From Thermaerobacter sp. PB12/4term (GTDB taxonomy: Bacteria > Bacillota > Sulfobacillia > Thermaerobacterales > Thermaerobacteraceae), in assembly GCF_003403315.2 (NCBI RefSeq), contig NZ_CP048407.1:992001-1056000 (forward strand): DNA of 64,000 bases. The letters run 5' to 3'. Both the position numbers and the translations under genes were made by a program. The notes below the pieces were generated by a model, which saw only the letters and a program-made list of their open reading frames with translations, had not been told where the DNA came from and did no database searches. Numbering within the stretch: the stretch's first letter is position 1; each line of letters starts with the position of its first letter. Of the stretch, positions 25,556 to 31,735 are shown in pieces.

Positions 25556-28123
25556 GTGCGCGTGCCGGTGGAGTGGTTGCGGGATTTCATCGACGTGGAA
25601 GAGGATGCCCGGACCCTGGCCGAGCGGCTCACCGCCCTGGGCCTGGAGGTAGAGGCCGTGGCGGTGGTGGCGCCCGAGGCGCGGGGTGTGGTGTCGGCCC
25701 GGGTGGAGGCGGTGGAAGCCCACCCCGAGGCGGCGGGCCTCAAGGTCTGCCGGGTGGCGGCAGGACCTGCCGGCCGGTTCACGGTGGTCACGGGGGCACC
25801 CAACGTGCGCCCCGGCATGGCGGTGGCCATGGCCCTTCCCGGGGCGGTGCTGCCCGGGGGGATGGACATCGGCGTGCGGGACGTGCGGGGTGTGGCTTCG
25901 GAAGGCATGCTGTGCTCCATCGCCGAGCTCGGCCTGGGGGACCAACCGGCCGACCGCGCCGGGCTGGCCGACCTGGAGGACCTGGCCGGGGGCGACCCCG
26001 CGGGCGTGCCCGCAGCGGGGGCGGACCTGGCTCCCTGGCTCGGCTGGACCGAATCGGTGCTGGAGCTTAGCCTGACGCCGAACTACGCAGCCCATTGCCA
26101 GAGCATCCTGGGCATCGCCCGGGAGCTGGCGGCCGCCACGGGCCGTCCCTGGCGCTTTCCCTGGGACCGGCAGGGGGAAGGGGGACCGGGCAGGCAGGCC
26201 GCAGCCGGTGTCGCGGCCGGGGGGGCCCCGGCGCCGGAGGCGCCAGGAGGGCCCGGCGGCGGCGAACCCGGGCGGCAGGAGGCTGCTGCGGCGCCGGCGG
26301 AGGCGTTCCTGGGAGGCGACTGGCCGGTGCGGGTCCGCATCGCCGACCCTGAGGGGTGCGGCCTGTACGTGGCCCGGATCCTCCTGGAGGTGCGGCCGGG
26401 CGGCTCGCCCCTCTGGCTGCGCCGGCGCCTGGTGGCGGCCGGCATGCGGCCCATCGACCGCATCGTCGACGTGACCAACTACGTCATGCTGGAGCTGGGC
26501 CAGCCCCTGCACGCCTTCGATGCGGAGGCCGTCGGCGGGGGGACGGTGGTGGTCCGCTCGGCGGCGCCGGGGGAGGTGCTGGAGACCCTGGACGGCCGCC
26601 GGCGTACCCTGGCGGAGGACGACCTGGTCATCGCCGACGCTTCCCGGCCCATCGGCCTGGCGGGGGTGATGGGCGGCGGCAATTCGGAGATCACCCCGGC
26701 CACCCGGGTGGTCCTGCTGGAGTCGGCCTGGTTCGAGCCGCGGCGGGTGCGGCGCACCGCCCGGCGGCACGGCCTGCTGACCGAGGCCGCCCAGCGGTTC
26801 GAGAAGGGGGTTGACCCCGAAGGCGTGGTGCGGGCAGCCGACCGGGCCATGGACCTGTTCCAGCAGGCCGGCGCGGGCCGGGCGGCCCCGGGTGCCGCGG
26901 TCGCCCGGGCGCGGGCCTTTCCCGAGCGCCGGGTGCCCTGGCGTCCCCAGCGGCTCCGCCAGTGGCTGGGGGTCGACCTGGACGACAGGACCATGGCGGG
27001 CCAGCTGGAGCGGCTGGGGTTTGCCGTCGACCCCGGGGCGGGGCAGGTCCGGGTGCCCTCCTACCGCACCGACATCGAGGGGGAGGTGGACCTGGCCGAG
27101 GAGGTGGGCCGGGTCTACGGCCTGGACCGGATCCCCGCCCTGCTGCCGGGCGGGATCCCGGCGCCCGACCAGGTCTCGCCCCGCCTGGCGCTGACATGGC
27201 AGGTGCGGGAGGCCCTGGCCCGGGCCGGAGCCCAGGAGGTGGTGAGCTGGGCCTTCACCCGGCCGGCGGTGTGGGACGGGCTGCGGCTCCCGGCCGATCA
27301 CCCCTGGCGGCGGGCCATCCCCCTGCTCCACCCCCTGGCGGAAGAACACAGCCTCTTGCGCACCACCCTGTTGCCCGGCCTGCTGGACGTCCTGGCCTAC
27401 AACGCCCGCCGGCAGCAGGCGGGGGCGCTGGTGTACGAGGCGGGGGCCGTGTTCGTCCCGGAGGACCTGCCGCTGCGGGAGTTGCCGGCGGAGCCCGTCC
27501 GGGTGGGCCTGGCGGGTTATGGCGAGCTGGGCGGCCTGCACTGGGCGGCGCCGCCGGTCCCCGTGGACTTCTTCACCCTGAAGGGCGTGCTGGAGGCGCT
27601 GCTGGACGAGCTGGGCATCCCGGCGGCGGCCTGCCGCTGGGAGCCGGTGGAGGAGCCGTGGCTTCACCCGGGCCGGGCGGCCGGGCTCTGGCTGGAGGGG
27701 CGGCGGGTGGGCTGGCTGGGCGAACTGCACCCCCAGGTGGCGGCGGCCTGGGACCTGGCGGGCCGCGCCGTGGCGGCGGAACTGGACCTGGAGGCCCTGC
27801 TGCCCGCGGTGCAGCCCGTACCGGCCTACCGGCCGGTAGCCCGGTTCCCGGCGGTGCGCCGCGACATCGCGGTGCTGGCCCCCCAGGAGATGCCCGCGGC
27901 GGCCATCACCCAGCGCATCCGCCAGGCGGCGGGCCCGCTGCTGGAAGCCGTTCACCTGTTCGACCGGTACACGGGGCAGCCGGTGCCCGAGGGGCAGGTC
28001 AGCCTGGCCTTCGCGCTGGTCTACCGGGCGGCGGACCGCACCCTGACCGATGAGGAGGTCGACGGGGTCCACGGCCGGGTGCGGCAGGCCCTGGCGGACA
28101 TGGGGCTGACCCCCCGGTCCTAG
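25556..28123 (+). CDS. pheT: phenylalanyl-tRNA synthetase beta subunit
   Basis: An 855-residue subunit. Domains in order: MRVPVEWLRDFID opening, an OB-fold tRNA-binding domain (about 40-155), the B3/B4 editing region with MRPIDRIVDVTNYVMLE (about 300) and GLAGVMGGGNSEI, the B5 domain with LAEEVGRVYGLDRIP, the catalytic-like core and the C-terminal anticodon-binding FDX-ACB domain ending DRTLTDEEVDGVHGRV. A Gly/Ala/Pro-rich insertion of about 45 residues (about 200-245) lies between the OB and B3 regions. GTG 25556 has GGAGGAAGG upstream. Forms an operon with pheS. Confidence 0.96.
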   Translation: MRVPVEWLRDFIDVEEDARTLAERLTALGLEVEAVAVVAPEARGVVSARVEAVEAHPEAAGLKVCRVAAGPAGRFTVVTGAPNVRPGMAVAMALPGAVLPGGMDIGVRDVRGVASEGMLCSIAELGLGDQPADRAGLADLEDLAGGDPAGVPAAGADLAPWLGWTESVLELSLTPNYAAHCQSILGIARELAAATGRPWRFPWDRQGEGGPGRQAAAGVAAGGAPAPEAPGGPGGGEPGRQEAAAAPAEAFLGGDWPVRVRIADPEGCGLYVARILLEVRPGGSPLWLRRRLVAAGMRPIDRIVDVTNYVMLELGQPLHAFDAEAVGGGTVVVRSAAPGEVLETLDGRRRTLAEDDLVIADASRPIGLAGVMGGGNSEITPATRVVLLESAWFEPRRVRRTARRHGLLTEAAQRFEKGVDPEGVVRAADRAMDLFQQAGAGRAAPGAAVARARAFPERRVPWRPQRLRQWLGVDLDDRTMAGQLERLGFAVDPGAGQVRVPSYRTDIEGEVDLAEEVGRVYGLDRIPALLPGGIPAPDQVSPRLALTWQVREALARAGAQEVVSWAFTRPAVWDGLRLPADHPWRRAIPLLHPLAEEHSLLRTTLLPGLLDVLAYNARRQQAGALVYEAGAVFVPEDLPLRELPAEPVRVGLAGYGELGGLHWAAPPVPVDFFTLKGVLEALLDELGIPAAACRWEPVEEPWLHPGRAAGLWLEGRRVGWLGELHPQVAAAWDLAGRAVAAELDLEALLPAVQPVPAYRPVARFPAVRRDIAVLAPQEMPAAAITQRIRQAAGPLLEAVHLFDRYTGQPVPEGQVSLAFALVYRAADRTLTDEEVDGVHGRVRQALADMGLTPRS

Positions 28124-28382: not shown

Positions 28383-28913
28383 ATGCGTGATGTGCCTCCG
28401 GCCGGGGGTCAGGACGAGGGGACAACCCACCGGGTCACGGTGCGGATCTTCGGGGAGGAGTACGTCCTCCGGGGTGAGGCGCGCCCGGCGTACATGGAAC
28501 GCCTGGCCGACATGGTCGACCGGCGCATGAACGAGATCGCCAAGCGCCACCCGCGCCTGGGCATCACCCGGATCGCCGTCCTGGCCGCCATCAACCTGGC
28601 CGATGAGCTCACCAAGCTGGAAGAGCAGTACCAGCGCGTGCTCGGCATGCTGGAGCGGGAATGGGACCGGCGCAAGCGGGAACTCAACGGCCGCTCGTCC
28701 GGGCAGGGCGCTCGCACGGCCGCACCGGGTGCCACGGGGGGGAGCGGCGGGGTACCGGCGGGACCGGGCAGCGGCGGCGCGCCGGGGAGCACTGCCGCGG
28801 CCGGGCAGGGGCTCCCGGCGGGAGGATCTGCGGCGGGGTCCGGCGGACCGGCCACAGGGCGGCCTGATGGCTCCTGGTCCGGCGGGGCGTCCCCGGCCGG
28901 GGATGGCCGGTGA
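28383..28913 (+). CDS. zapA: cell division protein ZapA-like
   Basis: A 176-residue protein whose first 110 residues are a ZapA domain: HRVTVRIFGEEYVLRGEA, YMERLADMVDRRMNEIA, then a helix NLADELTKLEEQYQRVLG. ZapA bundles FtsZ filaments at mid-cell as a dimer or tetramer. The remaining 65 residues are a disordered Gly/Ala/Ser/Pro tail that other ZapA proteins lack. ATG 28383 follows GGGAGGGG. The stop overlaps the polX start by four bases (GTGA), so the two are translationally coupled. The pheT-zapA-polX-mutS2 order is typical of Firmicutes. Confidence 0.9.
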   Translation: MRDVPPAGGQDEGTTHRVTVRIFGEEYVLRGEARPAYMERLADMVDRRMNEIAKRHPRLGITRIAVLAAINLADELTKLEEQYQRVLGMLEREWDRRKRELNGRSSGQGARTAAPGATGGSGGVPAGPGSGGAPGSTAAAGQGLPAGGSAAGSGGPATGRPDGSWSGGASPAGDGR

Positions 28914-30937
28914 GCCCGCAAGAAGGCACCAGCCGCAGCCCGCGCCCTGGCGCCGCCGGCGGGCCCGGGAGCTCCGCCGGACCGGCGGGCGGCGGCCGTT
29001 CCCCCCGCCCGGAGCCCGCGGGCGGGACCGATGGCGACCCGCCCGGCGGGGCCGCTGCGGTACCCGCCATGACCAACAAGCGGGTCGCCGCCCTCCTGGA
29101 AGAGATCGCCGACCTGGTGGAGATCGACGGCACCGACGCCCGCAAGGCCGGCGCCTACCGCCGGGCCGCCCGCACCGTTTCGGCCCTGCGGGACGACCTG
29201 CGCCAGTACCTGGAAGGCGACCGCCTGCTTTCCCTGCCGGGGATCGGCCCCGCCATCGCCGCCAAGATCCGCGACTTCTACGCCACCGGTTCCACCCGCC
29301 TGCTGGACGAGCTCCGTGCCCGGGTGCCGGCGGGGGTGCAGGCCCTGCTGGCCGTTCCCGGCCTGGGCCCGCGGACGGCGGCGCGGCTCTTCCACGAGCT
29401 CGGCATCGACTCCCCCGCGGCCCTGAGGGAAGCCCTGGAGGATGGCCGGGTGGCCGCTCTGCCGGGCATGGGGGAGGCTCGGGCCCGCAAGCTGCGGGAG
29501 GCCCTGGACCGGCTGGACCGGGAGGGCCGGCGGCTCAACCTGGGGGAAGCCCTGGCGGTGGCGACCGCCGTGGCGGAAGAACTGGGCCGGCAGCCCGGCG
29601 TGGCGGAGGCGCTGCCGGTGGGCGCCGCCCGGCGCGGGGTGGAGCAGGTGGAGGCGGCGGAGGTGCTGGTCCTGGCGGAGGAACCGGCGGTGGCGGCCGC
29701 CGCGGTGGCCGCCTGGCTCGGCCCGCAGGGCGGTACGGCAGGGTCCTCCGGCGGCGGTGATGTCCCCGCAGGGGCCGGCGACCAGGACATCCCGGCGGCG
29801 GCCGGCGGCGAGGGCGCTCCGGTGGGGCCGGATGGGGACGGCACCCTGCGGGTTCTGGCCGGGACCACCGGCGAGGGTTGGCCGGTGCGGGTCACGGTGG
29901 CACCCCTGGCTGCGCGGGCCGCAGCCCTCATCTACACCACGGGTAGCCAGGCCCACTGGCGCCAGTTGCGGCAGCGGGCCCGGCAGCGGGGATGGGAGCT
30001 GGAACCGGCGGGGTTGCGGTCCCCGGGGGGCGGCCGTGAAGGAACAAGCGGCGAGGAAGCGTCCCTCTACCGGAGCCTGGGGCTGGAGCCCGTTCCGCCC
30101 GAACTGCGGGAAGGGCAGGGCGAGGTGGAGGCCGCCGCCGCGGGCCGTCTGCCCCGGGTGGTCGCTGTGGCCCAACTGCGGGGCGATTTGCATGTCCACA
30201 GCCGCTGGAGCGACGGCGCCGCATCCATCGCCGAGATGGCCGCGGCGGCCCGGGCGCGGGGCTACCTCTACCTGGCCATCTGCGACCACAGCCGCTCCCT
30301 CAAGGTGGCCCACGGGCTGGAGATCGCGGAACTGGAGGCCCAGTGGGCCGAGATCGACCGCCTGAACGGCGAGCTGGCGGCCGCGGGGGTCGATTTCCGG
30401 ATCCTGAAGGGGGCGGAGGTGGACATCCTCAAGGACGGGCGCCTGGACTACCCGGACGAGATCCTGGCCCGCCTCGACGTGGTGGTGGCGTCGGTCCACA
30501 CCCACCTGCAGCTGGACCGGCAGGCCATGACCGAGCGCCTGCTGGCGGCGGCCGAACACCCCCACGTGGACATCATCGGCCACCCCACGGGACGCCGGCT
30601 GGGTTTCCGGGACCCCTACGACGCCGACCTGGAGGCGGTGATCGCCGCCGCCGCGCGTTACCGCACCGCCCTGGAGATCAACGCCTCGCCCGAGCGCCTG
30701 GACTTGCCTGCCGTCTGGGCCCGCCGCGCTGCGGAAGCGGGGGTCTGGCTGGTCATCGACACCGACGCCCACGCACCGGAACAGCTCGAGCAGGTGGTCC
30801 TGGGCATCAAGGTGGCCCGCCGCGCCTGGGTCGAACCCGGCCAGGTCCTCAACACGCTGGACCGGGACGCCCTGCTGGCGTGGCTGGAGGCGCCCAAGGG
30901 CCGGCGGCCCGGGCCGCCAGGGACCGCCGGCGCCTGA
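28910..30937 (+). CDS. polX: PolX family protein: helix-hairpin-helix and PHP domains, polymerase site apparently lost
   Basis: Up to 675 residues. Domains: three helix-hairpin-helix motifs (LPGIGPAIAAKI, VPGLGPRTAARL, LPGMGEARARKL), a degenerate nucleotidyltransferase palm, and a C-terminal PHP phosphoesterase. The PHP part keeps its metal motifs: GDLHVHSRWSD, ICDHS, KGAEVDI, IGHPTGR and DTDAHA. In the palm, PolX usually has GSLRRG, then GDxD and later a VDLR-type third Asp; here these places read GAARRG, EAAEV and WPVRVTV, so the three catalytic Asp are absent. A Gly-rich insertion lies between. GTG 28910 overlaps zapA; ATG 29069, just before the first domain, is the alternative start. Confidence 0.85.
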   Translation: MSPQEGTSRSPRPGAAGGPGSSAGPAGGGRSPRPEPAGGTDGDPPGGAAAVPAMTNKRVAALLEEIADLVEIDGTDARKAGAYRRAARTVSALRDDLRQYLEGDRLLSLPGIGPAIAAKIRDFYATGSTRLLDELRARVPAGVQALLAVPGLGPRTAARLFHELGIDSPAALREALEDGRVAALPGMGEARARKLREALDRLDREGRRLNLGEALAVATAVAEELGRQPGVAEALPVGAARRGVEQVEAAEVLVLAEEPAVAAAAVAAWLGPQGGTAGSSGGGDVPAGAGDQDIPAAAGGEGAPVGPDGDGTLRVLAGTTGEGWPVRVTVAPLAARAAALIYTTGSQAHWRQLRQRARQRGWELEPAGLRSPGGGREGTSGEEASLYRSLGLEPVPPELREGQGEVEAAAAGRLPRVVAVAQLRGDLHVHSRWSDGAASIAEMAAAARARGYLYLAICDHSRSLKVAHGLEIAELEAQWAEIDRLNGELAAAGVDFRILKGAEVDILKDGRLDYPDEILARLDVVVASVHTHLQLDRQAMTERLLAAAEHPHVDIIGHPTGRRLGFRDPYDADLEAVIAAAARYRTALEINASPERLDLPAVWARRAAEAGVWLVIDTDAHAPEQLEQVVLGIKVARRAWVEPGQVLNTLDRDALLAWLEAPKGRRPGPPGTAGA

Positions 30938-31096: not shown

Positions 31097-31735
31097 GTGT
31101 ACGTTCCCCGGCATTTTCAAATGGATCCGGCGGAGGCCGTCGCCTTCATGCGGGCCCATCCCTTTGCCATCCTGGTCACCGCGGCCGGTGGCACGCCGGT
31201 GGCGACCCACCTTCCCGTTCAGGTGCATGAGCAGGGTGAGCGAATCGGGATCACGGGGCACATCGCCGCCGCCAACGAGCAGAAGGAGACCTTTGCCGGT
31301 GGAACCACGGCCCTGCTGATTTTCCACGGCCCCCACACCTACATCTCCTCCAGCTGGTATACGGTGGACGAGGTCCCCACATGGAATTATCTGGCGGTCC
31401 ACGCCTACGGGACCCTGCGTACCCTGTCGGAGGAAGAGCTCGAAGCGGATCTCAAGTACCTGCTGCTCCAATACGAGGGGCACCGGGAGAACGGGCGCCT
31501 GTGGGATACCCTTCCGCCCGGATTGCTGGCTCGTCAGATGAAGGGCATCGTGGGGTTTCGAGTGGATGTGACGCGCCTCGAAGCCAAAGCGAAGATGAGC
31601 CAGAACCGGAAGGACATCGACTACAAGCACATTGTGGAGCGGCTGGAGGCGTCCCCCGACCCCATGGACCATGCCGTGGCCGCCTGGATGCGGGCCCACC
31701 GGCAGCATCTGTTCAACGGACCGGCCCAGGGATAG
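31097..31735 (+). CDS. FMN-binding PaiB-like protein
   Basis: A 212-residue protein of the PaiB family: MYVPRHFQMDPAEAVAFM, then FAILVT, ATHLPVQV, GHIAAAN, then ISSSWY and PTWNYLAVHAYG, which are typical conserved segments of the flavin-binding split-barrel fold. PaiB of Bacillus is described as a negative regulator with PaiA; no paiA is next to it here. GTG 31097 follows GAGGAGGTGCGG. The gene looks less GC-rich than its neighbours, with codons such as AAT, TAT and GAA, which may mean later acquisition. It separates polX from mutS2. Confidence 0.88.
   Translation: MYVPRHFQMDPAEAVAFMRAHPFAILVTAAGGTPVATHLPVQVHEQGERIGITGHIAAANEQKETFAGGTTALLIFHGPHTYISSSWYTVDEVPTWNYLAVHAYGTLRTLSEEELEADLKYLLLQYEGHRENGRLWDTLPPGLLARQMKGIVGFRVDVTRLEAKAKMSQNRKDIDYKHIVERLEASPDPMDHAVAAWMRAHRQHLFNGPAQG

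What the first reader, a model, noticed from the sequence alone, without database searches (positions are those of the whole stretch)
29560..30010. PolX homologue with an apparently dead polymerase domain but an intact PHP domain
The PolX palm needs GS...RR...GDxD and a later Asp. Here the places read GAARRG, EAAEV and WPVRVTV, so none of the three metal-binding Asp remains. The three HhH motifs and all PHP metal motifs stay. This would be a structure-guided PHP nuclease or phosphatase rather than a polymerase, with a Gly-rich loop in place of the fingers/palm region.
Basis: partly seen in the sequence, partly recalled or inferred. Interest (0 to 1): 0.6.

Follow-up and report, generated by a model that had tools for sequence, protein, structure and literature searches.

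The report
PolX exonuclease with dead polymerase site
This gene encodes a DNA-repair protein of the PolX family that has lost the residues needed to copy DNA but keeps its DNA-trimming nuclease; it is another example of a kind of protein described in 2022, so it is real but ordinary.

Summary
The polX gene (ATG 29069 to stop 30937, 622 aa) aligns end to end with Thermus thermophilus PolX. At the three polymerase Asp positions it reads Ala196, Glu198 and Arg274 (AER). The three HhH motifs, the lyase lysine and all nine PHP metal ligands (HHHEHHEDH) are kept. Three congeners share AER and the altered palm, so this is no sequencing error.

The palm fold and the fingers YTTGS motif survive. The Gly/Ala-rich stretch is a disordered, fast-changing insert inside the palm: the GSxRR-to-third-Asp span is 90 residues instead of about 57.

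Such proteins are known: "noncanonical PolX" (Prostova 2022, PMC9226535), about 27% of prokaryotic PolX. Tested members lack polymerase activity and are Mn2+-dependent 3'-5' exonucleases. I expect the same here, with end trimming in break or base-excision repair. The genome also has Ku, an ATP ligase and a LigD-type polymerase.

The gene sits in the ancestral pheT-zapA-polX-mutS2 locus. A canonical DDD copy occupies this locus in an order-mate, so loss in place is likeliest, although one shared origin with the Deinococcus cluster is not statistically excluded (AU p 0.17). New member of a known kind; low interest.

The parts
29069..30937 (+). polX gene, noncanonical PolX of 622 aa (a GTG at 28910 would add 53 low-complexity residues)
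29069..29518 (+). N-terminal 8-kDa domain and HhH region, residues 1-150; lyase-type Lys66 kept
   Evidence: Pfam PF14716, PF14520; Lys66 column is K in 94 of 108; its role as the Pol beta Lys72 equivalent is from general knowledge
29531..29920 (+). palm domain, residues 155-284, nucleotidyltransferase fold kept but triad lost
29621..29635 (+). GAARR (185-189), counterpart of GSARR
29654..29662 (+). A196-A-E198, counterpart of D-x-D of the GDxD motif
29729..29839 (+). Gly/Ala-rich insert modelled as disordered, residues 221-257
   Evidence: pLDDT under 50; 39-44% identity to the two more distant congeners
29888..29890 (+). Arg274 in place of the third catalytic Asp
29924..30112 (+). fingers domain (Pfam DNA_pol_B_thumb, 286-348) with YTTGS intact
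30173..30892 (+). PHP domain, residues 369-608, metal ligands H375 H377 H407 E450 H477 H505 E536 D566 H568

Best explanation
It is a noncanonical bacterial PolX. The 8-kDa/HhH region and the catalytically dead palm and fingers act as a DNA-binding scaffold that holds gapped or broken DNA ends (inferred). The C-terminal PHP domain uses a Mn2+ cluster to trim 3' ends (3'-5' exonuclease) and perhaps to cut at AP sites or remove 3' phosphates (inferred from assayed homologues). Any filling-in must be done by another polymerase, for example the LigD-type PrimPol encoded beside Ku in this genome (gene presence shown, partnership inferred). The polymerase site was most likely lost in place in the ancestral zapA-polX-mutS2 locus, before the genus diversified. 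The palm then decayed and gained a disordered Gly/Ala-rich insert.
For: Full-length match to T. thermophilus and D. radiodurans PolX by sequence (E 5e-107 and 4e-78) and by fold (Z 43.5 over 556 residues for 3au6). Triad AER in all four genomes of the genus. PHP nine intact. In the genus, palm plus fingers differ 2.2-3.0 times more than PHP in the three informative pairs (p 3e-4 to 6e-7). Three other altered pairs give 1.7-2.2 and one (DDQ) gives 0.77; canonical pairs mostly give 0-1.3, with one at 2.0. PHP dN/dS is 0.14-0.24 and the insert 0.36-0.67. There is no second PolX in the genome. Ku, ligase and LigD PrimPol sit together at G000:C1 about 1.364-1.368 Mb. Homologues with AEE and ARE triads have no polymerase activity but a strong Mn2+ exonuclease, and a single D203A change kills B. 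subtilis PolX polymerase (PMC9226535). Locus pheT-zapA-polX-mutS2 is shared with canonical order-mate L011 and many other Bacillota.
Against: No activity was measured. Glu198 is invariant in the genus, and the RR and TGS of the nucleotide site are kept, so very weak or Mn2+-dependent synthesis is not strictly excluded. Lecointe 2004 reported polymerase activity for the AEE D. radiodurans enzyme, a result later attributed to contamination (PMC9226535). In-place loss is not proven: AU does not reject grouping with the Deinococcus/Alphaproteobacteria cluster (p 0.17).
Confidence: 0.9

Rival explanations
1. It is still a weak polymerase: Glu198 and a rearranged loop acid bind one metal, and the retained RR and YTTGS bind dNTP.
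For: E198 invariant in the genus; GxxRR and TGS conserved. Polymerase activity was once reported for D. radiodurans PolX (cited in PMC9226535).
Against: Ala and Arg occupy the other two metal positions, and Arg at the third brings a positive charge. Loop acids are not conserved. Palm and fingers change 2-3 times faster than PHP. A single D to A change abolishes polymerase in B. subtilis PolX (PMC9226535).
Confidence: 0.04
2. Same protein, but acquired by horizontal transfer from the main noncanonical cluster (Deinococcus, Bacteroidetes, Alphaproteobacteria) rather than inactivated in place.
For: The D. radiodurans motif GDVRRGLETVRAAELTV is strikingly like GAARRGVEQVEAAEVLV. A first quick tree was improved by joining the genus to D. 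radiodurans. AU p 0.17 in the fuller tree.
Against: In the careful tree D. radiodurans joins the rhizobial altered PolX (100/98) and the genus joins its own class and order (98/92), including canonical L011. The locus is the ancestral pheT-zapA-polX-mutS2.
Confidence: 0.12
3. Assembly or frameshift artefact, or a pseudogene.
For: High G+C, low-complexity insert.
Against: Open, aligned and under purifying selection in four separate genomes of the genus; AER in all four.
Confidence: 0.01

Closest known systems
Noncanonical prokaryotic PolX (Prostova et al. 2022, PMC9226535), e.g. Deinococcus radiodurans PolX (AEE) and D. gobiensis PolX (ARE)
   Same: Full five-domain PolX, triad substituted, PHP HHHEHHEDH intact, 8-kDa/HhH region intact, genome with NHEJ genes
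   Different: Triad AER; palm lengthened by about 33 residues instead of shortened; fingers YTTGS kept; tree places it with its own class rather than with the Deinococcus/rhizobial cluster
Canonical PolX of T. thermophilus and B. subtilis
   Same: Whole architecture, fold (Z 43.5); Bacillota-wide zapA-polX-mutS2 locus
   Different: Canonical GSARR...GDLD...D triad absent
PolX-like proteins of Actinobacteria (PMC12926913)
   Same: PHP kept, no functional polymerase
   Different: Those lack the polymerase region altogether; here the palm and fingers are physically present
Stand-alone PHP proteins (YcdX, HisK/HisJ)
   Same: PHP fold and metal ligands (Z 28 for 1m65)
   Different: No HhH or palm scaffold in those

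Membership tests
Noncanonical PolX (PMC9226535) | Substitution of one or more catalytic triad acids in the palm | tested here: met
   A196/E198/R274
Noncanonical PolX (PMC9226535) | Conserved PHP active site HHHEHHEDH | tested here: met
Noncanonical PolX (PMC9226535) | Intact 8-kDa / HhH N-terminal region | tested here: met
   PF14716 residues 1-75, PF14520 91-147
Noncanonical PolX (PMC9226535) | Deletions in palm and/or fingers (frequent, not obligatory) | tested here: not met
   Palm longer, not shorter; fingers full
Noncanonical PolX (PMC9226535) | No polymerase activity; Mn2+-dependent 3'-5' exonuclease | not testable with these tools
   Needs purified protein
Main noncanonical cluster (Bacteroidetes/Deinococcus/Alphaproteobacteria) | Monophyly with that cluster | tested here: inconclusive
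   Careful tree puts it with its own class (98/92); AU does not reject joining (p 0.17)
Canonical PolX polymerase | Three acidic triad residues | tested here: not met
PolX family (architecture) | 8 kDa - thumb/HhH - palm - fingers - PHP | tested here: met
   (NCBIfam NF006375 above cut-off)

The most novel reading that the evidence does not exclude
The dead palm is not just a relic: with its conserved RR, E198 and TGS and its disordered loop it has become a sensor (of nucleotide, 5' phosphate or a partner such as Ku) that controls the PHP nuclease, in a lineage that lost the triad independently of Deinococcus.
Probability: 0.1. Interest if true: 0.45.

Novelty: new member of a known kind. Interest (0 to 1): 0.2.

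Why it matters
It adds a case, shared by a whole genus, to the recurrent loss of polymerase activity in bacterial PolX, and it supports the view that the PHP nuclease is the part selection keeps. Within this one class, canonical and altered PolX occupy the same ancestral locus, which makes the group useful for dating such losses. It does not change the picture drawn in 2022.

Tried and rejected
Translation one base out of frame gave stops, corrected. The Pfam palm model PF14792 is not diagnostic: even Thermus composti stays below its cut-off, so the missing palm hit was not used. A first quick tree suggested D. radiodurans next to L009/L021, and a forced join with the genus scored better; the fuller careful tree replaced it. 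Two further AU tests did not finish, and one was not begun. Whether the eight altered sequences of the 9-row clade around the genus lost the triad once or several times is undecided (single clade not rejected, p 0.59). Artefact or pseudogene rejected by congeners. No paper held mentions both Thermaerobacter and PolX; the genus name itself is my guess from gene content and was not tested.

Full report
What is there. The window carries pheT (25556-28123), zapA (28383-28913), polX (ATG 29069 to 30937), an FMN-binding gene (31097-31735) and mutS2. P0001, the 622-aa product from ATG 29069, passes the NCBIfam cut-off for PolX (NF006375, 430.7 bits against 426) and matches Pfam HHH_8, HHH_5, DNA_pol_B_thumb and PHP. 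By sequence its best solved relatives are T. thermophilus PolX (E 5e-107) and D. radiodurans PolX (E 4e-78).

The active site. HMMER alignment to T. thermophilus PolX places GSARR/GDLD/VDLR against GAARR/EAAE/VRVT. A MAFFT alignment of 108 PolX proteins gives the same columns: A196, E198, R274. No Asp in the palm or insert is invariant across the genus, while E198 is. The PHP nine are HHHEHHEDH, as in 104 of 108 proteins. GxxRR and TG are invariant even among altered proteins, so they probably serve the fold rather than catalysis (inference).

The loop. The distance from GxxRR to the third Asp is 57 residues in 74 of 85 canonical proteins, but 90, 92, 93 and 100 in the four congeners. AlphaFold2 on an alignment of 48 proteins gives mean pLDDT 90.5, keeps the palm strands and leaves 221-257 disordered. 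VIA-align gives Z 43.5, 4.2 A over 556 residues with T. thermophilus PolX 3au6, and Z 40 with D. radiodurans PolX (15.6 A, so a different relative arrangement of domains). So the palm is present, carrying an insert, and the fingers are intact.

Decay of the palm. In the three informative genus pairs, palm plus fingers differ 2.2-3.0 times more than PHP (p 3e-4 to 6e-7). Altered pairs elsewhere with at least one other deep change (KEE/QEE, NSD/NDD, REA/ADR) give 1.7-2.2. Ten canonical pairs give 0-1.3, and one canonical pair with a shortened palm gives 2.0. The DDQ pair of Anaerolineales gives 0.77, like the canonical ones. dN/dS in the genus is 0.10-0.18 for the N-terminal region, 0.14-0.24 for PHP, 0.17-0.31 for the first palm part and 0.36-0.67 for the insert; values for the short palm end and fingers are noisy. 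The nuclease and DNA-binding ends are kept under selection and the palm is relaxed but not free.

History. Relatives in the class show DDD or DDE in many families, and AER, GDR, NDH, QDR, REA, RVE, ADR, AED and GDQ in others. A tree without palm and fingers columns puts the genus in a 9-row clade (98/92) with L005, L006, L009, L021 and canonical L011 of the same order, and puts D. radiodurans with rhizobial altered PolX (100/98); well-supported branches force at least 8 changes of state over the tree. Zap A-polX-mutS2 synteny is found in the genus, in both order-mates and in Bacillota such as Lederbergia lenta. In-place loss is therefore likelier than transfer. AU does not reject joining the genus to the Deinococcus/rhizobial group (p 0.17), nor a single loss for the eight altered members of the local clade (p 0.59).

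Function. Prostova et al. 2022 (PMC9226535) defined noncanonical PolX, 809 of their sequences or 27.5%. They showed that D. radiodurans (AEE) and D. gobiensis (ARE) enzymes do not polymerise but are Mn2+-dependent 3'-5' exonucleases through PHP, and noted smaller separate groups, many in Firmicutes. A 2026 survey (PMC12926913) found PHP sites more conserved than polymerase sites (95% against 75%). The window protein fits. Its genome has a single PolX, plus Ku, an ATP-dependent ligase and a LigD-type primase-polymerase in adjacent genes (L035), so another enzyme could supply end filling. That PolX works with them is inference; 51 of 61 relatives searched have Ku regardless of PolX type.

Verdict. 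Real, correctly spotted, already explained. The only unusual detail is palm lengthening by an unstructured insert where the published cases mostly show deletions.

Noticed in passing
31097-31735: An FMN-binding (PF04299, PaiB-like) gene lies between polX and mutS2 in this genome and G001 but was not found there in G002 or G003.
   Followed up: partly
L035:3363-6856 (G000:C1 about 1364362-1367855): NHEJ genes are split: Ku, a stand-alone ATP ligase and a stand-alone LigD PrimPol in one row, rather than a fused LigD.
   Followed up: partly
L065, L084, L091, L108: Anaerolineales PolX share a DDQ triad; the one pair tested (L084/L108) changes no faster in the palm than in PHP, unlike other altered PolX, so these may still be active polymerases or lost the Asp recently.
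   Followed up: no
L014, L017: Canonical DDD PolX of one family with a palm shortened to a 40-residue GxxRR-to-Asp span and a faster-changing palm; perhaps an early stage of loss.
   Followed up: no
28383-28913: ZapA has a Gly/Ala/Pro-rich low-complexity C-terminal tail of roughly 85 residues beyond the Pfam domain.
   Followed up: no
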